DNA of 64,000 nucleotides, taken from NCBI RefSeq assembly GCF_019711395.1, contig NZ_JAIGNL010000002.1, forward strand, positions 601,001 through 665,000, given 5' to 3'. Both the position numbers and the translations under genes were made by a program. The stretch comes from Qipengyuania xiapuensis (GTDB lineage Bacteria > Pseudomonadota > Alphaproteobacteria > Sphingomonadales > Sphingomonadaceae). The notes below the pieces were generated by a model. The model worked only from the letters and a program-made list of their open reading frames with translations. It did no database searches and was not told the origin of the DNA. Positions 51,516 to 59,854 of the stretch are shown piece after piece; position 1 is the stretch's first letter; every line of letters starts with the position of its first letter.

Positions 51516-53600
<2,085 letters not shown>

Positions 53601-54200
53601 CTATCCGTGCGTGCTTGCCGCCTGCCATTCGGCGATCGCATCGATCGGGAACAGCAGCATGATCACATTGAGCGTCAGCCCGTCGCGCACCACCACGCCT
53701 GCCACCACTTCGCCAATGATCGCGAGCGCTACGGTCCACTTCACCGGCAGGCGCAGCGCGAGCCAGAAACCGAACGCCATCCAGCAGATGTCGGCCGCCG
53801 AATTGAGCACGCTGTCACCCGAATAGCCGAAGTTGGCGGTGACCGAACGAAAGCGGTCGATCACAAGCGGCGTATTCTCGGCGACTTCCCACGCCGCCTC
53901 GAGGAATACCGCAAGCGGCAGGCCCCAGCGCTTGGCGGCATCCGCGCCGCCCAGACCTCGGCGCACGAACAGCCACCAGCCCAGCGCGTAGAAGATCATG
54001 CCGTGGATGATGTGGCTGGGCGTGTACCAGTCGGAGATGTGCTGGCTGTTGCCGGCGTCGTTGATCAGGCCGTGCCACAGCTTGACGTAGCCGCATTCGC
54101 AGATCGGCGGGCGATCCATGGCGAGCAGGACGAGGACGGCTGCGACAGTGATGCCGAGCGAGACGAATATCGCGGTGCGACCGGGTGCAAGCTTTCCCAT
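53601..54200 (-). CDS. DUF2585 (UPF0314-type) membrane protein
   Basis: 199 residues from the ATG at 54200. Pattern: RPPICECGYVKLWHG, SQHISDWYTPSHIIHG, EAAWEVAENTPLVIDRFR and YSGDSVLNSAAD, all marks of the alphaproteobacterial DUF2585 family, with about five or six helices. Role unknown. Located next to the tRNA-derived repeat that marks the island boundary. Confidence 0.85.
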   Translation of the reverse strand: MGKLAPGRTAIFVSLGITVAAVLVLLAMDRPPICECGYVKLWHGLINDAGNSQHISDWYTPSHIIHGMIFYALGWWLFVRRGLGGADAAKRWGLPLAVFLEAAWEVAENTPLVIDRFRSVTANFGYSGDSVLNSAADICWMAFGFWLALRLPVKWTVALAIIGEVVAGVVVRDGLTLNVIMLLFPIDAIAEWQAASTHG

Positions 54201-54257: not shown

Positions 54258-54304
54258 TGGATGCCCCGTGAGGATTCGAACCTCAATTGACGGAGTCAGA
54301 GTCC
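54258..54304 (-). repeat. Duplicated 3' part of tRNA-Gln (distal att-like repeat)
   Basis: 47 bases identical to 59781-59827, from the CCA end through the T arm and variable loop to the anticodon stem; homology stops abruptly on both sides. It cannot fold as a complete tRNA. It is best read as the far attachment site (att) of the island. Confidence 0.9.
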
Positions 54305-54585
54305 CATCGGTAGGGACATGGCCTCCGTTGAAAACCGCGAAAAACCGGGACGTTCGCGCCGCCATGTCGCAAATTTTCTGCACTGCGGATCAGTCGCGAT
54401 CGGGAACATCATGTCGAAACGGCTGCGGATCTTCGCACGCTTTGTGACCAATTCTTGCCTTCGGCACCCTGAGCCACAACGTCGGCAACCGGCCCCAAAG
54501 CTGCCCGCCCGCTCCTTGCGCGGCGATGGCTCGGCGAAAGCGGCTTCAGATGGGTGGACAGCGGACGTGACGATTTGTCACGCCC
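54305..54585. other. Junction DNA without a gene
   Basis: 281 bases between the tRNA-derived repeat and the truncated GH68 gene. No supported ORF was found. A perfect 6-bp inverted repeat (54566-54571 with 54577-54582) lies just after the GH68 fragment stop and could end the gal transcript. Probably island scar DNA. Confidence 0.5.
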
Positions 54586-54864
54586 TTAGCTCGTCGGGAT
54601 ATAAGACACGCGCGCATGGTGATGGCGCTGTCCCGGATCGGGGAGACGCGGCGAGCTCAGGAAAAACCAGTACTGCACGCCGTCGATCTCGACCGTCGAA
54701 CCGTCCTCGTGCTGGAGCGGCCAGCAGTCCCACAGATCGCAGTCGGGCAGCAACGGCGTCACGTCCGATTGGCCGATCGCCGGCAGTTCGGCGGGCTGCC
54801 ATCCGGGCCCGCAGAGCCACTTCGATGAGCCCATGGTCGGGGCGGGATCGGCTTGAGCCATCAT
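54586..54864 (-). pseudogene. N-terminal fragment of a GH68 levansucrase/invertase-like gene
   Basis: About 92 residues remain from the ATG at 54864 (or 54861), seven bases after the galK stop. The stretch DLWDCWPLQHEDGSTVEIDG then LPDPGQRHHHARV resembles the start of GH68 proteins, where the Asp in the WD-WP motif is the nucleophile. After HARV the sequence changes and stops at TAA (54586). Normal GH68 proteins are about 400 residues, so about three quarters is missing. It sits in the same operon as galK. Confidence 0.65.
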
Positions 54865-54871
54865 CCAATAC

Positions 54872-55993
54872 TCAATTATGTGCCCTGATCGTGACTTCGC
54901 CGAAGCCATGGAGCGGCTTGCCGTCGCGGTCGATTTCGCCGACAACCCGGTCGGCCTCGCTTGCTTCGCAGAACAGCACGATCGATCCGCCGAACCCGCC
55001 GCCGGTCATGCGCGCGCCGCCTTGCGCGCCGATGATTTCATTGAGCCAGTCCACCTGCGCGTCGACTTGGGGATGGCTCGCCTCGAACAGGTCGCGCATC
55101 GATGCATGGGCATCGCGCAGGAGCGAGCCCAGCCGCTCCAGGTCGCGATCGTCGATGGCGGCTGCAGCCTGCCGGGTTCGTTCGATTTCGCTGACAACAT
55201 GGCGCGCCCTGAGGGCTTGGGTTTCGCCGAGCGCGGAATAATCCACTCCGGCCGGATCGACATCGCGCAAGCTCGCCACGCCGAGCGCTTCGGCTGCCGC
55301 CTCGCAATCGGTACGGCGGGAATTATAGGCGCCGTCGACCAGTTCGCGGGTGACGCCGGACTGGACGACGATGACGCTCCAGTCCTCAGGTAGTCCGACC
55401 TGCCGCCACTCGAGGCTGCGGCAGTCTAGCAGCATGGCCTTGCCTTCCTTGCCTGCTGCAACGACCATCTGGTCCATTATCCCGCAGGCGACCCCGGCGA
55501 AACGGTGCTCCACCTGTTGCGCAATCTGCGCGAGCCGTGTCGGTGAGTAGCCCATGGCCCCTGCGGCTTCGAGCAGAGCGCGCCCAATGGCGATGCACAG
55601 CGAGGCGGAAGAAGAGAGGCCCGATCCGCGCGGAAGGTCGCCCGCGATCAACAGGTCGAGGCCTCCGCCAACCAGGCCTTCCTCCTGAAGGAGATGCGCC
55701 ATGCCATGTACGAGCGAGTGCCAACCGTCCTGCACCGGTGGCTCCTCGCCGGGATGGAACTGCAAGACTTCGTCGCCATAGTCGCTGGCGCGGACATCGA
55801 GCAGTTCGTCCTCGCGGCGCTTCCATGCGACTGCCGTACCCAGCGCGAGCGGCATGGGCAGGACGAGACCGTCGTTATAGTCGACATGATCGCCAATAAG
55901 ATTCACCCGGCCCGGCGCGAAGGCAACGCCATCGGGTGAGGCACCGAAGCTGCGCTCGAAGCGGGTGCGGGCCGTCTCGATTGCGCCGCTCAT
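54872..55993 (-). CDS. galK: Galactokinase
   Basis: A 373-residue GHMP kinase. N-terminal RVNLIGDHVDYNDG is the galactose-binding signature, and LPRGSGLSSSASLCIAIG is the phosphate loop. The C-terminal MTGGGFGGSIVLF is typical. It phosphorylates galactose at C1, first step of the Leloir pathway. It overlaps galT by four bases (ATGA). Confidence 0.95.
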   Translation of the reverse strand: MSGAIETARTRFERSFGASPDGVAFAPGRVNLIGDHVDYNDGLVLPMPLALGTAVAWKRREDELLDVRASDYGDEVLQFHPGEEPPVQDGWHSLVHGMAHLLQEEGLVGGGLDLLIAGDLPRGSGLSSSASLCIAIGRALLEAAGAMGYSPTRLAQIAQQVEHRFAGVACGIMDQMVVAAGKEGKAMLLDCRSLEWRQVGLPEDWSVIVVQSGVTRELVDGAYNSRRTDCEAAAEALGVASLRDVDPAGVDYSALGETQALRARHVVSEIERTRQAAAAIDDRDLERLGSLLRDAHASMRDLFEASHPQVDAQVDWLNEIIGAQGGARMTGGGFGGSIVLFCEASEADRVVGEIDRDGKPLHGFGEVTIRAHN

Positions 55994-57000
55994 ATCGCCA
56001 CCGCCTTGAGCCGTGCGGCGGCCTCCTCGGGCGTCAGGTCGCGCTGGGTTTCGGCAAGCAATTCGAAACCCACCATATGCTTGCGCACCGTCGCGCTACG
56101 CAGGAGCGGAGGGTAGAAATGCGCGTGCAGGCGCCAGTGGGCGCTGTCTTCGCCAAGTGCGTGCGGTGCGCCGTGCCAGCCCATCGAATAGGGGAAGTCG
56201 ACCCCGAACAGGCCGTCGTATCGCTTGAGCAATCGGCCAAGAATGTGCGACAGGCTTTCGCGCGCGCGCTCATCCAGCTGTTCGAGCCGCGCGACGTTCT
56301 GTCTGGCCACCAGCAGCGTCTCGAATGGCCATGACGCCCAATGCGGGACGATGGCGAGCCACTCCTCGTTCTCTTCGACGACCCGTCGTCCATCCGAGGT
56401 TTCCGCTTCGATCACTTCGGCGAGGAGCGCCTTGCCGCGACTTTCGAAATGCTCGCGCTGGCGGTGCTCTTCCAGTCCGACCGATTGCGGCATGAAATCG
56501 CTCGCCCAGACCTGCCCATGCGGGTGCGGCGAGGAGGCACCCATCATTGCGCCCTTGTTCTCGAACAATTGTACATGCGCCCATTTCGCGCCGAGCTCTG
56601 CCGACAGGTCGCACCAGCATTCGACCACCGCCCGCCTGCCCGTATCGTCCATTCGTGCAAGCGTGTGCGAGTGGTTGGGCGAATAGCAGACGACCCGCGC
56701 CTCGCCGCGTGCCGGCATGGTCTCGAACAGCTCGCTCGCGCCCGCTTCCTCCCCATCGTCGAGCAGTGCGGGGAAGTCGTTCGGGAAGACGAAGGCCGCC
56801 GAATAGGCGGGATTGGCCTCGCCCCCGGTTCGCGTATTGCCAGGGCAGAGATAGCAGTCCGGATCGTATTCCGGCGCATCGGCGGGCGGCACGTCCGCTT
56901 GCTCTCCCTGCCATGGCCGCTTGGCCCGGTGCGGAGAAACCAGCACCCATTCGCCCGTAAGAAGGTTGCGCCGCCGGTGCGGCAGATCGCCGCCGCTCAT
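55990..57000 (-). CDS. galT: Galactose-1-phosphate uridylyltransferase
   Basis: 336 residues. Active-site HPHGQVWA holds the nucleophilic His; CYLCPGNTRTGG supplies the zinc-type Cys pair; HWRLHAHFYPP is at the C-terminal end. It transfers UMP from UDP-glucose to Gal-1-P. Overlaps both neighbours (ATGA). The galE epimerase that completes the pathway is not in the window. Confidence 0.95.
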   Translation of the reverse strand: MSGGDLPHRRRNLLTGEWVLVSPHRAKRPWQGEQADVPPADAPEYDPDCYLCPGNTRTGGEANPAYSAAFVFPNDFPALLDDGEEAGASELFETMPARGEARVVCYSPNHSHTLARMDDTGRRAVVECWCDLSAELGAKWAHVQLFENKGAMMGASSPHPHGQVWASDFMPQSVGLEEHRQREHFESRGKALLAEVIEAETSDGRRVVEENEEWLAIVPHWASWPFETLLVARQNVARLEQLDERARESLSHILGRLLKRYDGLFGVDFPYSMGWHGAPHALGEDSAHWRLHAHFYPPLLRSATVRKHMVGFELLAETQRDLTPEEAAARLKAVAI

Positions 57001-59102
57001 GCCGCCTCCTCCAGATGGAATATCGCCACGCTTTCCGCCTTCTGGAGCGGCATCGGAAGGCCGCTCTCGGCAAGCCAGCTACCGCTGAACTCGACCGCTT
57101 CCTTGCCCATGCGAGTGAACAGGTCCGCACGCATCATTCCGTGACCTGCCTGTTCGCCGATGTCGAGCAGGCGGACCTTCCACGCCTCCCCAAGCGATGC
57201 GAAGGGCAGGCGAAGCGGCTGGGGCCTACGATCCTGCGGCGGCGAGGTGCGCACGCAGAAAAGCAGTTTCTCGCGCGCAGTCCCTTGCGCCTGCCAAAGC
57301 AGGTCGTCCGTGCCTTGGCCGAGGTCGACGCGGGTTCGGTGCAGCAGGTGGCGCCATTGTTTGTAGAAGCCGATCCAGCGCGCCAATTCCATGCGGTCCC
57401 CTTCGGCCAGCGCCTCGGGGTCGAGCTCGACGCCCAGATGCCCCATGCAAGCGATCGCCGCGCGGAAGCCCATGGCCTGGCTGCGACCGGTGGCATGCGC
57501 CGGGCTGGCGCCGACATGGGAGCCCATCAGTTCGGGCGGCAGGAAGGCGAGGAAGCCACGCTGCATGGCGACTCGCGCCACGGAATCGATATTGTCGCTG
57601 GTCCAGAAGCGGTGAACGAAGGGTGCGAGGCCCGCGTCGCTTCGCCCCCCGCCGCCTGCGCAGCCCTCGATCTCGACATCGGGATGCGCGGCCCGAAGGC
57701 GGCCGAATAGATCGTAGGACCCGCGCGTCTGGCCCGCGCCGCCCGATGGCGCATGGTCGCGGTTGTGATCCCACTTGAGGTAGGAGATCGGCGTTTCCGA
57801 CAGGATCGCATCGAGCCGCGCGAACAGGTGGTCGCGGACGTCTTCGCGGCGCATGTCGAGCACGAGCTGGTTGCGCGCGGTGGGCCGCTTGCGTCCATCT
57901 GCGGCAAGCGCCCATTCGGGGTGGGCGCGGTAAAGATCGCTGTCGGTATTTATCATTTCAGGCTCGACCCAGAGGCCGAATTCCATGCCCATTTTGCGGA
58001 CCTGCGAAGCGAGCGGCCCCAGCCCGTCGGGATACGTTTCGGGATCGGTTTCCCAATCGCCAAGCCCGGCGCGGTCGTGTCTCCGGCCCTTGAACCAGCC
58101 ATCGTCGAGGACGAAGCGCTCGATGCCGATATCGGCCCCGGCCTGTGCAAGGCGGGCAATGCGATTAGCATCGTGGGCGAAATAGCAGGCTTCCCAGCTG
58201 TTGAGATGCACCGGGCGCGGCTTCATCGCGCCGCCCGGCCACTGGGTCAGCGAGCGCACTGCGGCATGCTGCTGCGCCATCGCGCCATTGCGGCCGCGCG
58301 TGGAAATGGCGAGGAACGCCTCGGGCGCGGTAAAGGTCGCGCCTTTTGAGAGGACCAACTCTCCGGGTGCCAGCGTGGCCTGTGCCGACAGATGCCAGTA
58401 CCCCTCGTCGTCGCGCTCGACAGCGATTTCGCTATCGCCCGACCAGGCCAATTGCACCGCGTGGACAAGGCCGCGATGCCAGCCCGTGTCGGTATCGAGG
58501 ACATAGGCTCCCGGAGGGCCGCCGTGGCCTGAAATGCCGCGCCGCGTGACGCGCTCCCAGCGATGCTCGGGCATGGCTTCGCGGCACTCTTTGAGTTCGG
58601 CATTATGCCGCCCGCGCCACGAGACGATGCTGTCCGAGCTTGCGTTGAGGGGAACCTGGATGCTTGCAAGCGAGGCCAGTACGACAGGGTCTTCGCCGAA
58701 GCTGGTAATCCTGGCAGAAAACCCGAAGGCGCCCCCGTCGATCACTCGGATGGTGAGCGCATGACAAATGGAGGAGACGTCGTCGAAGGACCTGACTTCG
58801 ATCCGGTCATCGGCTTCCTCGACCTCGAAACGGGTCGGCGCAAACAGCGTGGCGGCGCCTGCTGGGTCCCGAAGTTCGACTGCAGCCGGACCGAACCAGC
58901 CCATGCCCGCCGGAGGTACAAGCGCTGCCGACAGATCGTGATCGGGCGCAAAGGAGGCTGGACCGCGGCATTCTGCAAGCGATGGAAGATCGCCCGGCCT
59001 CACCCGCGTGCCGCAATGGCGCCACAACACCCCGCGGTCCGGATCATGCTCCAGGACTATGCTCGCTTCGGGGGCGTTTAAAGTGACCAGCGACGGGCTC
59101 AA
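56997..59102 (-). CDS. GH36 alpha-galactosidase
   Basis: A 701-residue retaining alpha-galactosidase. The nucleophile region is YLKWDHNRDHAPS (Asp of WDHN), the acid/base Asp lies in FWTSDNIDS, and the substrate-binding GCAGGGGRSD segment precedes it. It cleaves terminal alpha-galactose from melibiose, raffinose or galactomannan. No signal peptide, so it acts on imported sugars. Start TTG at 59102, seven bases after GGAGG and three bases after the transporter stop. First intact gene of the island operon. Confidence 0.93.
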   Translation of the reverse strand: MSPSLVTLNAPEASIVLEHDPDRGVLWRHCGTRVRPGDLPSLAECRGPASFAPDHDLSAALVPPAGMGWFGPAAVELRDPAGAATLFAPTRFEVEEADDRIEVRSFDDVSSICHALTIRVIDGGAFGFSARITSFGEDPVVLASLASIQVPLNASSDSIVSWRGRHNAELKECREAMPEHRWERVTRRGISGHGGPPGAYVLDTDTGWHRGLVHAVQLAWSGDSEIAVERDDEGYWHLSAQATLAPGELVLSKGATFTAPEAFLAISTRGRNGAMAQQHAAVRSLTQWPGGAMKPRPVHLNSWEACYFAHDANRIARLAQAGADIGIERFVLDDGWFKGRRHDRAGLGDWETDPETYPDGLGPLASQVRKMGMEFGLWVEPEMINTDSDLYRAHPEWALAADGRKRPTARNQLVLDMRREDVRDHLFARLDAILSETPISYLKWDHNRDHAPSGGAGQTRGSYDLFGRLRAAHPDVEIEGCAGGGGRSDAGLAPFVHRFWTSDNIDSVARVAMQRGFLAFLPPELMGSHVGASPAHATGRSQAMGFRAAIACMGHLGVELDPEALAEGDRMELARWIGFYKQWRHLLHRTRVDLGQGTDDLLWQAQGTAREKLLFCVRTSPPQDRRPQPLRLPFASLGEAWKVRLLDIGEQAGHGMMRADLFTRMGKEAVEFSGSWLAESGLPMPLQKAESVAIFHLEEAA

Positions 59103-59105
59103 GGA

Positions 59106-59600
59106 TCAGCCTCCGACCGGTTCGGCAATCAGGTCGTCTCCCGACCGCCAGCCTTCGCGCACCCAGAGGACGGCGAGCGCGGCCACGAACAGGCAGGCAC
59201 CCGACACCCTCAGCACATTGCGCGGATCGCCGCCCAGCACGCCGTCGTAGAAACCGAGGCCGATGTTCACGATGCCGAGATTGAGCGAGCTCATCACGAA
59301 GGCGAAGAGCAGCATCGGGATCACGATCATCATGTTGAAGATGCCCATATAGACGCCCACGCGCTCGGGCGGGATCGAGTTGGAGAGGATGACGTAGGGA
59401 TTGCCCATGATGCTGCCCCATGCAACCCCGACACCGACGATCGCCACGAATAGCAGCGCCTTTTCCTCGATTCCCGGCAGCACCAGCATGCTGACGCCGC
59501 CCGCGGCCAGGGCCAGCGCGTGTAGCGGACCGGCTCCGATCCGCTTGGCGATGGGGACCATGGCGAAGGCGGCGACAAAGGCTATGTTAACAGGGGCGCG
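59106..59600 (-). pseudogene. Truncated MFS sugar:H+ symporter, C-terminal part only
   Basis: About 160 residues with five or six helices remain. VGVYMGIFNMMIVIPMLLFAFV and GGDPRNVLRVSGACLF match the C-terminal half of maltose/sucrose-type MFS carriers, which are usually about 450-500 residues. Upstream, the reading frame runs out into non-homologous DNA with a TGA at 59616-59618, so the first half has been lost. A non-functional remnant; the same promoter region may once have driven the whole gal operon. Confidence 0.75.
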
Positions 59601-59642
59601 ACGATCACTTTGATGTCAGATGGGCTGAACATTTCGGCCTTT

Positions 59643-59732
59643 CATGTTGCATCCATGTTGCATGGAGCCACCGAGAGTGTGACGGATGCGGCGGTAATAC
59701 AAGGGATTAGCTGCGCAACATGGCGCAACACG
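59643..59732. repeat. Decamer repeats near the island end (possible arm-type sites)
   Basis: CATGTTGCAT occurs at 59643 and 59654 (11-base period). The related GCGCAACATG and GCGCAACACG stand in tandem at 59713 and 59723, the first being the complement of CATGTTGCGC. Repeats of this kind flank integrase core sites. This is a positional guess. Confidence 0.35.
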
Positions 59733-59780
59733 GGGAATTGGGAGTCAGCCCGCGAAGGCCTTGTTTTTGCTATGGAATAA

Positions 59781-59854
59781 TGGATGCCCCGTGAGGATTC
59801 GAACCTCAATTGACGGAGTCAGAGTCCGTAGTCTTACCATTAGACGACGGGGCA
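59781..59854 (-). tRNA. tRNA-Gln (CTG anticodon)
   Basis: Minus strand, with CCA encoded. The acceptor TGCCCCG/CGGGGCA pairs; D arm is GTCTAATGGTAAGAC. The anticodon stem ACGGA/TCCGT encloses the loop CTCTGAC, giving anticodon CTG (reads CAG). T arm GAGGTTCGAATCCTC. The 3' 47 bases are duplicated at 54258, the island boundary; this copy is complete and should be the functional one. Confidence 0.95.

What the first reader, a model, noticed from the sequence alone, without database searches (positions are those of the whole stretch)
54258..59854. tRNA-Gln-bounded island remnant with truncated genes at both edges
Seen: an exact 47-bp direct repeat of the tRNA-Gln 3' part bounds 5.5 kb holding galK, galT and GH36. 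A truncated GH68 sits at one edge and a truncated MFS carrier at the other. Established: insertion of integrative elements into tRNA genes leaves such a repeat. Inference: the original element was larger and carried a raffinose/alpha-galactoside pathway (alpha-galactosidase plus sucrose-cleaving GH68 plus transporter), then lost its ends and integrase.
Basis: partly seen in the sequence, partly recalled or inferred. Interest (0 to 1): 0.7.

Follow-up and report, generated by a model that had tools for sequence, protein, structure and literature searches.

The report
Worn tRNA-Gln island replacing galactose genes
A mobile DNA island that once landed beside a glutamine tRNA gene has worn down to three galactose-use genes, which seem to stand in for the bacterium's own deleted copies; it is a clear example of a known process rather than a new kind of system.

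Summary
Observation confirmed: an exact 47-bp copy of the tRNA-Gln(CTG) 3' part (54258-54304) and the tRNA (59781-59854) bound 5.5 kb with full-length galK, galT and GH36, an N-terminal GH68 stub and a C-terminal MFS stub. The island reading holds: 8 of 60 genus genomes carry such a tRNA fragment, and in the 7 others an integrase lies beside it; compact sites without the island exist (G034, 257 bp between thiC and tRNA). Correction: the ends were not lost. 104 bp inside the fragment match G067/G022 and 151 bp beside the tRNA match G030/G036/G065, carriers of a different integrase type, so two elements were probably joined. Addition: named relatives (genus Qipengyuania) hold the complete operon MFS-GH36-galT-galK-GH68 in 13 of 52 loci compared; the genus's own SSS-GH36-galT-galK locus is reduced here to a GH36/galK deletion scar with SSS and galM kept; the island's GH36 and GalT fall outside the native clade. 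Acquired enzymes have probably replaced native ones. Known kind, unusually legible.

The parts
59781..59854 (-). tRNA-Gln(CTG), intact; its 3' 47 nt are the tRNA-side attachment repeat
54258..54304 (-). 47-bp fragment of the tRNA 3' part, distal attachment repeat
   Evidence: 8 of 60 genus genomes have such fragments
54305..54408 (.). kept distal element end, type of G067/G022
   Evidence: 77% to G067 over 104 bp (E 1e-16), 74% to G022 over 95 bp (E 4e-11), directly inside their fragments
54409..54585 (.). stretch of unknown origin between distal end and GH68 stub
   Evidence: no match at E up to 1e-3 among the fetched loci (one at 0.006)
54586..54864 (-). GH68 stub, about 92 N-terminal residues
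54872..55993 (-). galK, full length
   Evidence: only full copy in the own genome
55990..57000 (-). galT, full length
   Evidence: only copy in the own genome
56997..59102 (-). GH36 alpha-galactosidase, full length
   Evidence: only full copy in the own genome
59106..59588 (-). MFS carrier stub, C-terminal third; open frame 59106-59561
59628..59778 (.). kept tRNA-side element end, type of G030/G036/G065
   Evidence: 80% over 151 bp to G030 (E 6e-32), 71% over 99 bp to G036, 67% over 140 bp to G065
53601..54200 (-). DUF2585 gene, chromosomal flank shared with G030 and G082

Best explanation
This is the remnant of integrative DNA inserted by tyrosine integrases into tRNA-Gln, with the crossover on the anticodon side, so that the element supplied the tRNA's 3' part. 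Its cargo was the operon MFS-GH36-galT-galK-GH68. Deletions removed the integrase, most of the element, two thirds of the MFS gene and most of GH68, leaving the outer element ends and three enzyme genes. The two ends belong to different element types, so the likeliest history is two elements in tandem and a deletion across their junction (inferred). In the same genome the native GH36-galT-galK block was lost by a deletion joining the GH36 start to the galK end, while the native SSS symporter and aldose epimerase stayed. The present route is probably a hybrid: native import (inferred) plus acquired alpha-galactosidase, galactokinase and uridylyltransferase. Shown: repeats, ends, stubs, scar, tree position. 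Inferred: order of events, tandem state, substrate, expression.
For: Repeat and tRNA. Fragment in 8 of 60 genus genomes, integrase beside it in the 7 others (six confirmed by Pfam, G065 by tblastn only). Both ends conserved at the same position in other islands; 400 shuffled queries gave 6 hits at E up to 0.01, best 0.004. Complete operon in 13 of 52 named loci compared. Native scar: GH36 piece 45/72 identical to G012's native protein against 28/70 to the island's; galK piece 24/49 against 19/49. SSS, GH36 and galT counts 17, 18 and 18 of 60. Trees: native genes on one side of a branch with 100/100 (GH36) and 100/99 (GalT) support, own island with G075 and Parerythrobacter lacustris on the other. 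dN/dS 0.10-0.28 for the three enzymes.
Against: No integrase piece is left in the island (best tblastn E 0.22). No inner tRNA fragment between two elements. GC of the island (65.0%) is like its flanks (62.8 and 65.2%). dS to G075 (1.05-1.28) is not lower than for core genes (0.30-0.92), so no recent donor is identified, and an old second copy with many losses is not excluded. G028 pairs a G030-like integrase with a tRNA-side end that clusters elsewhere, so end type and integrase type need not always go together.
Confidence: 0.8

Rival explanations
1. One single element, eroded inside; the unlike ends are variation among elements or an exchange of one end, not two elements in tandem.
For: Only one fragment is present; end and integrase types are also mixed in G028.
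Against: The tRNA-side end clusters only with G030, G036 and G065, whose integrases (68-79% alike) differ from those of G022/G067 (36-39% to them), while the distal end matches only G067/G022.
Confidence: 0.35
2. The gal operon is an old second copy of the genus, lost in most species, and only moved or was caught next to the tRNA; it was not brought in from outside.
For: dS between own and G075 copies is as high as or higher than core genes; in Parerythrobacter lacustris the MFS-type operon lies directly behind an SSS gene as the native one does in the genus.
Against: 2 of 60 genomes have this type, at different places; its place here is inside an element-bounded tRNA site.
Confidence: 0.15
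3. The 47-bp copy is an independent tRNA pseudogene or chance repeat.
For: G061 has a short tRNA-Gln piece (23 bp exact) without a recognised integrase in the fetched stretch.
Against: 47 of 47 identical, ending at the tRNA 3' end, same orientation, next to conserved element ends; fragments beside integrases in 7 other genomes.
Confidence: 0.01

Closest known systems
tRNA-gene genomic islands as defined by the Islander database (PMC4383910; abstract and passages seen)
   Same: intact tRNA gene plus displaced 3' fragment in the same orientation on the right side, anticodon-side attachment site (site A in that paper)
   Different: no integrase inside, which Islander's filter requires; ends of two types
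Xenologous gene displacement (term met in one passage of PMC5702140)
   Same: homologues of another lineage stand in for lost native genes
   Different: replacement at another locus and limited to the enzymes; the native transporter is kept
alpha-galactoside operons MFS-GH36-galT-galK-GH68 of Parerythrobacter and Novosphingobium
   Same: same gene order and the nearest complete operon, L125
   Different: MFS and GH68 truncated, no LacI-like gene next to it (LacI named by eye in L125)

Membership tests
tRNA-gene genomic island (Islander criteria) | tRNA gene and a 3' fragment of it, same orientation, fragment downstream | tested here: met
tRNA-gene genomic island (Islander criteria) | integrase gene inside | tested here: not met
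   none of four PF00589 matches of the own genome is on this contig; tblastn of six integrases against the island, best E 0.22. Filed as a remnant only
tRNA-gene genomic island (Islander criteria) | length 2-200 kb | tested here: met
   5.5 kb
Tandem (composite) island | own tRNA fragment and integrase for each member | tested here: not met
   one fragment, no integrase; the two-element reading rests on the unlike ends
Xenologous displacement | acquired gene outside the native clade | tested here: met
Xenologous displacement | native gene lost in the same genome | tested here: met
   scar
Xenologous displacement | acquired gene does the native job | not testable with these tools
   needs growth and expression tests

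The most novel reading that the evidence does not exclude
The galactose route was split and re-paired reciprocally: the acquired operon kept its enzymes and lost its transporter, the native operon kept its transporter and lost its enzymes. The same exchange happened twice in the genus, here and in G075, where SSS is also kept without native GH36-galT-galK and the other-clade genes lie elsewhere. The native symporter would then be the fixed point around which enzyme sets are swapped, with tRNA-Gln elements as one carrier.
Probability: 0.35. Interest if true: 0.55.

Novelty: new member of a known kind. Interest (0 to 1): 0.4.

Why it matters
One genome shows the steps by which a mobile island becomes ordinary chromosome: site-specific landing, loss of the integrase, trimming to the useful genes, and loss of the native equivalents. 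The kept ends and the scar make the order of events testable in sister strains, and island finders that require an integrase would pass over such remnants.

Tried and rejected
A motif search for integrases in the fetched loci gave 2 hits (G015, G022), set aside without a Pfam test, and missed the six integrases later found by reading ORFs and confirmed by Pfam. The genus search for PF00589 has a capped list and was not used for counts. GC gave no signal. The pattern RTGTTGCRYY is not enriched in the window as a whole (3 matches, 2.17 expected), so I claim no arm sites. The promoter/terminator scan found no promoter and one terminator-like site, on the other strand; read-through from the tRNA promoter is a guess. 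The 64% over 215 aa is inflated by an out-of-frame reading of the SSS end; the figure used is 45 of 72. Scar translations were in the wrong frame and are not used. In 'MFSlinked' means every row not SSS-linked; no MFS gene was shown next to L124, L135, L138, L139 or L184. Of 48 loci offered, 41 (GH36) and 33 (GalT) passed the length limits, the truncated L124 being let in for GH36; the rest were dropped. Of 79 loci, 52 were compared; 27 mostly distant ones were left out. dN/dS for the MFS stub failed and was redone (0.18). The SSS search used a limit of E 1e-150. The family search with the DUF2585 flank was meant to find an exact empty site; I did not follow its loci. Names GH42, LacI, GH32, oxoprolinase-like and aldehyde dehydrogenase are by eye from sequence, from no call. 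Papers: searches are listings; PMC4383910 abstract and passages; PMC5702140 one passage. None of those listings showed a paper on this locus, by title.

Full report
What is there. The window is C2:601001-665000 of a 2.71-Mb genome in two contigs. tRNA-Gln(CTG) is at 59781-59854, minus strand; an exact 47-bp copy of its 3' part is at 54258-54304, same orientation, on the tRNA's 3' side. Between them one minus-strand operon reads MFS stub, GH36, galT, galK, GH68 stub.

Is it an island. A query over tRNA-Gln and ppx matches 60 of 60 genus genomes; 8 of them, this one included, also have a 3' tRNA-Gln fragment of at least 47 bp (a 68-bp piece at a contig edge in G062 is not counted). In the 7 others an integrase lies on the inner side of the fragment: G022, G067, G036, G009, G030, G028 (Pfam) and G065 (tblastn). 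The gap is 25-484 bp except 3.55 kb in G028. From tRNA to fragment the islands measure about 10 kb (G030), 15 kb (G028), 43 kb (G022) and 45 kb (G036). G034 has 257 bp between thiC and tRNA-Gln. In G034 and G011 the tRNA is preceded by AATGTGGGAGAAG; the own fragment by AAATGAGAAG and G030's by GAATGAGAAG, as expected if the fragment's outer side is the tRNA's old neighbour. In G082, similarity to the own DUF2585 side runs to within 2 bp of the repeat and stops. None of 53 other fetched tRNA loci holds the gal genes; 6 of the other 59 genomes were not fetched there, and three fetched stretches were short.

Ends kept, and of two kinds. The 104 bp inside the fragment match G067 (77%) and G022 (74% over 95 bp), in the spacer between their fragments and integrases; the 151 bp beside the tRNA match G030 (80%), G036 (71% over 99 bp) and G065 (67% over 140 bp). 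Of 400 mononucleotide-shuffled queries 6 hits came at E up to 0.01, best 0.004, against 1e-16 and 6e-32. Clustering the 260 bp beside the tRNA of 54 loci puts the own one with just those three, and G022 with G035, G012 and G023. The integrases of G030, G036 and G065 are 68-79% alike, G022 and G067 78%, and the two sets 36-39% to each other. The plainest reading is two elements in tandem and a deletion across their junction. Against it: no inner fragment remains, and G028 mixes types.

The operon. All five genes in order occur in 13 of 52 named loci compared; 8 more have MFS-GH36-GH68 together without galT-galK. In Parerythrobacter lacustris (L125) the MFS ORF has 473 and the GH68 ORF 377 residues; here about 160 and 92 remain. 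The three enzymes show dN/dS 0.10-0.28; the MFS stub 0.18 and the GH68 stub 0.41, so the truncations may be young.

The native locus. GH36 and galT occur in the same 18 of 60 genomes. In 15 of them GH36 lies next to the SSS gene; in G006 the contig ends inside GH36; the other two are this genome and G075. SSS occurs in 17 of 60, those 15 and these two. Here, 86 kb from the tRNA, 361 bp between SSS and galM hold a GH36 start with an in-frame stop joined to a galK end, closer to the native proteins of G012 than to the island's (45/72 against 28/70; 24/49 against 19/49). A whole-genome galK search finds the island copy, this piece (E 0.0024) and one weaker match on C1 (E 0.015). In G075 the SSS gene is followed directly by a 1196-residue ORF that here lies beyond galM and another gene; no native remnant was seen, so it may never have had one. 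G075's other-clade GH36 lacks about the first 115 residues and is fused to an unrelated ORF, so its function is doubtful.

Origin. Trees of GH36 (42 rows) and GalT (34 rows) put the native SSS-linked genes on one side of a branch with 100/100 and 100/99 support; the own island lies with G075 and P. lacustris on the other. dS to G075 is 1.05-1.28, against 0.77 (SSS), 0.92 (ppx) and 0.30 (thiC): no recent common transfer, donor unknown. GC is uninformative.

How it most likely works. GH36 frees galactose from alpha-galactosides, GalK and GalT carry it into the Leloir route (established for these families, recalled). Import by the retained SSS protein (PF00474) is inferred. The MFS stub starts about 190 bp behind tRNA-Gln on the same strand, with no terminator-like site on that strand between, so read-through is possible but untested.

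Verdict. Observation right; interpretation mostly right, with two corrections (ends kept; probably two elements) and one addition (native block replaced). Known kind; interest moderate.

Noticed in passing
L108 9024-9385 (own contig C2, about 574.0-574.4 kb, outside the window): Deletion scar of the native gal operon: GH36 start joined to galK end between SSS and galM.
   Followed up: yes
L124 8984-11758 (Qipengyuania sp. XHP0207, G075): A 924-residue ORF fuses an unrelated N-terminal part to GH36 from about residue 117, next to galT and galK.
   Followed up: partly
54409-54585: About 180 bp between the distal element end and the GH68 stub with no convincing match among fetched loci.
   Followed up: partly
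L051 17532-17554 (G061): Short degenerate tRNA-Gln piece between thiC and tRNA-Gln, perhaps an older remnant of the same kind.
   Followed up: no
L058 19858-19882 (G015): A 25-nt piece of the 5' part of tRNA-Gln lies on the ppx side of the intact tRNA, perhaps an insertion from the other side.
   Followed up: no
L076 (G028), L090-L092 (G036), L101-L103 (G022): tRNA-Gln islands of about 15, 45 and 43 kb with varied cargo; those of G028 look partly like restriction-modification genes (by eye).
   Followed up: no
53454-53559: TPP riboswitch in front of thiC, as expected.
   Followed up: yes
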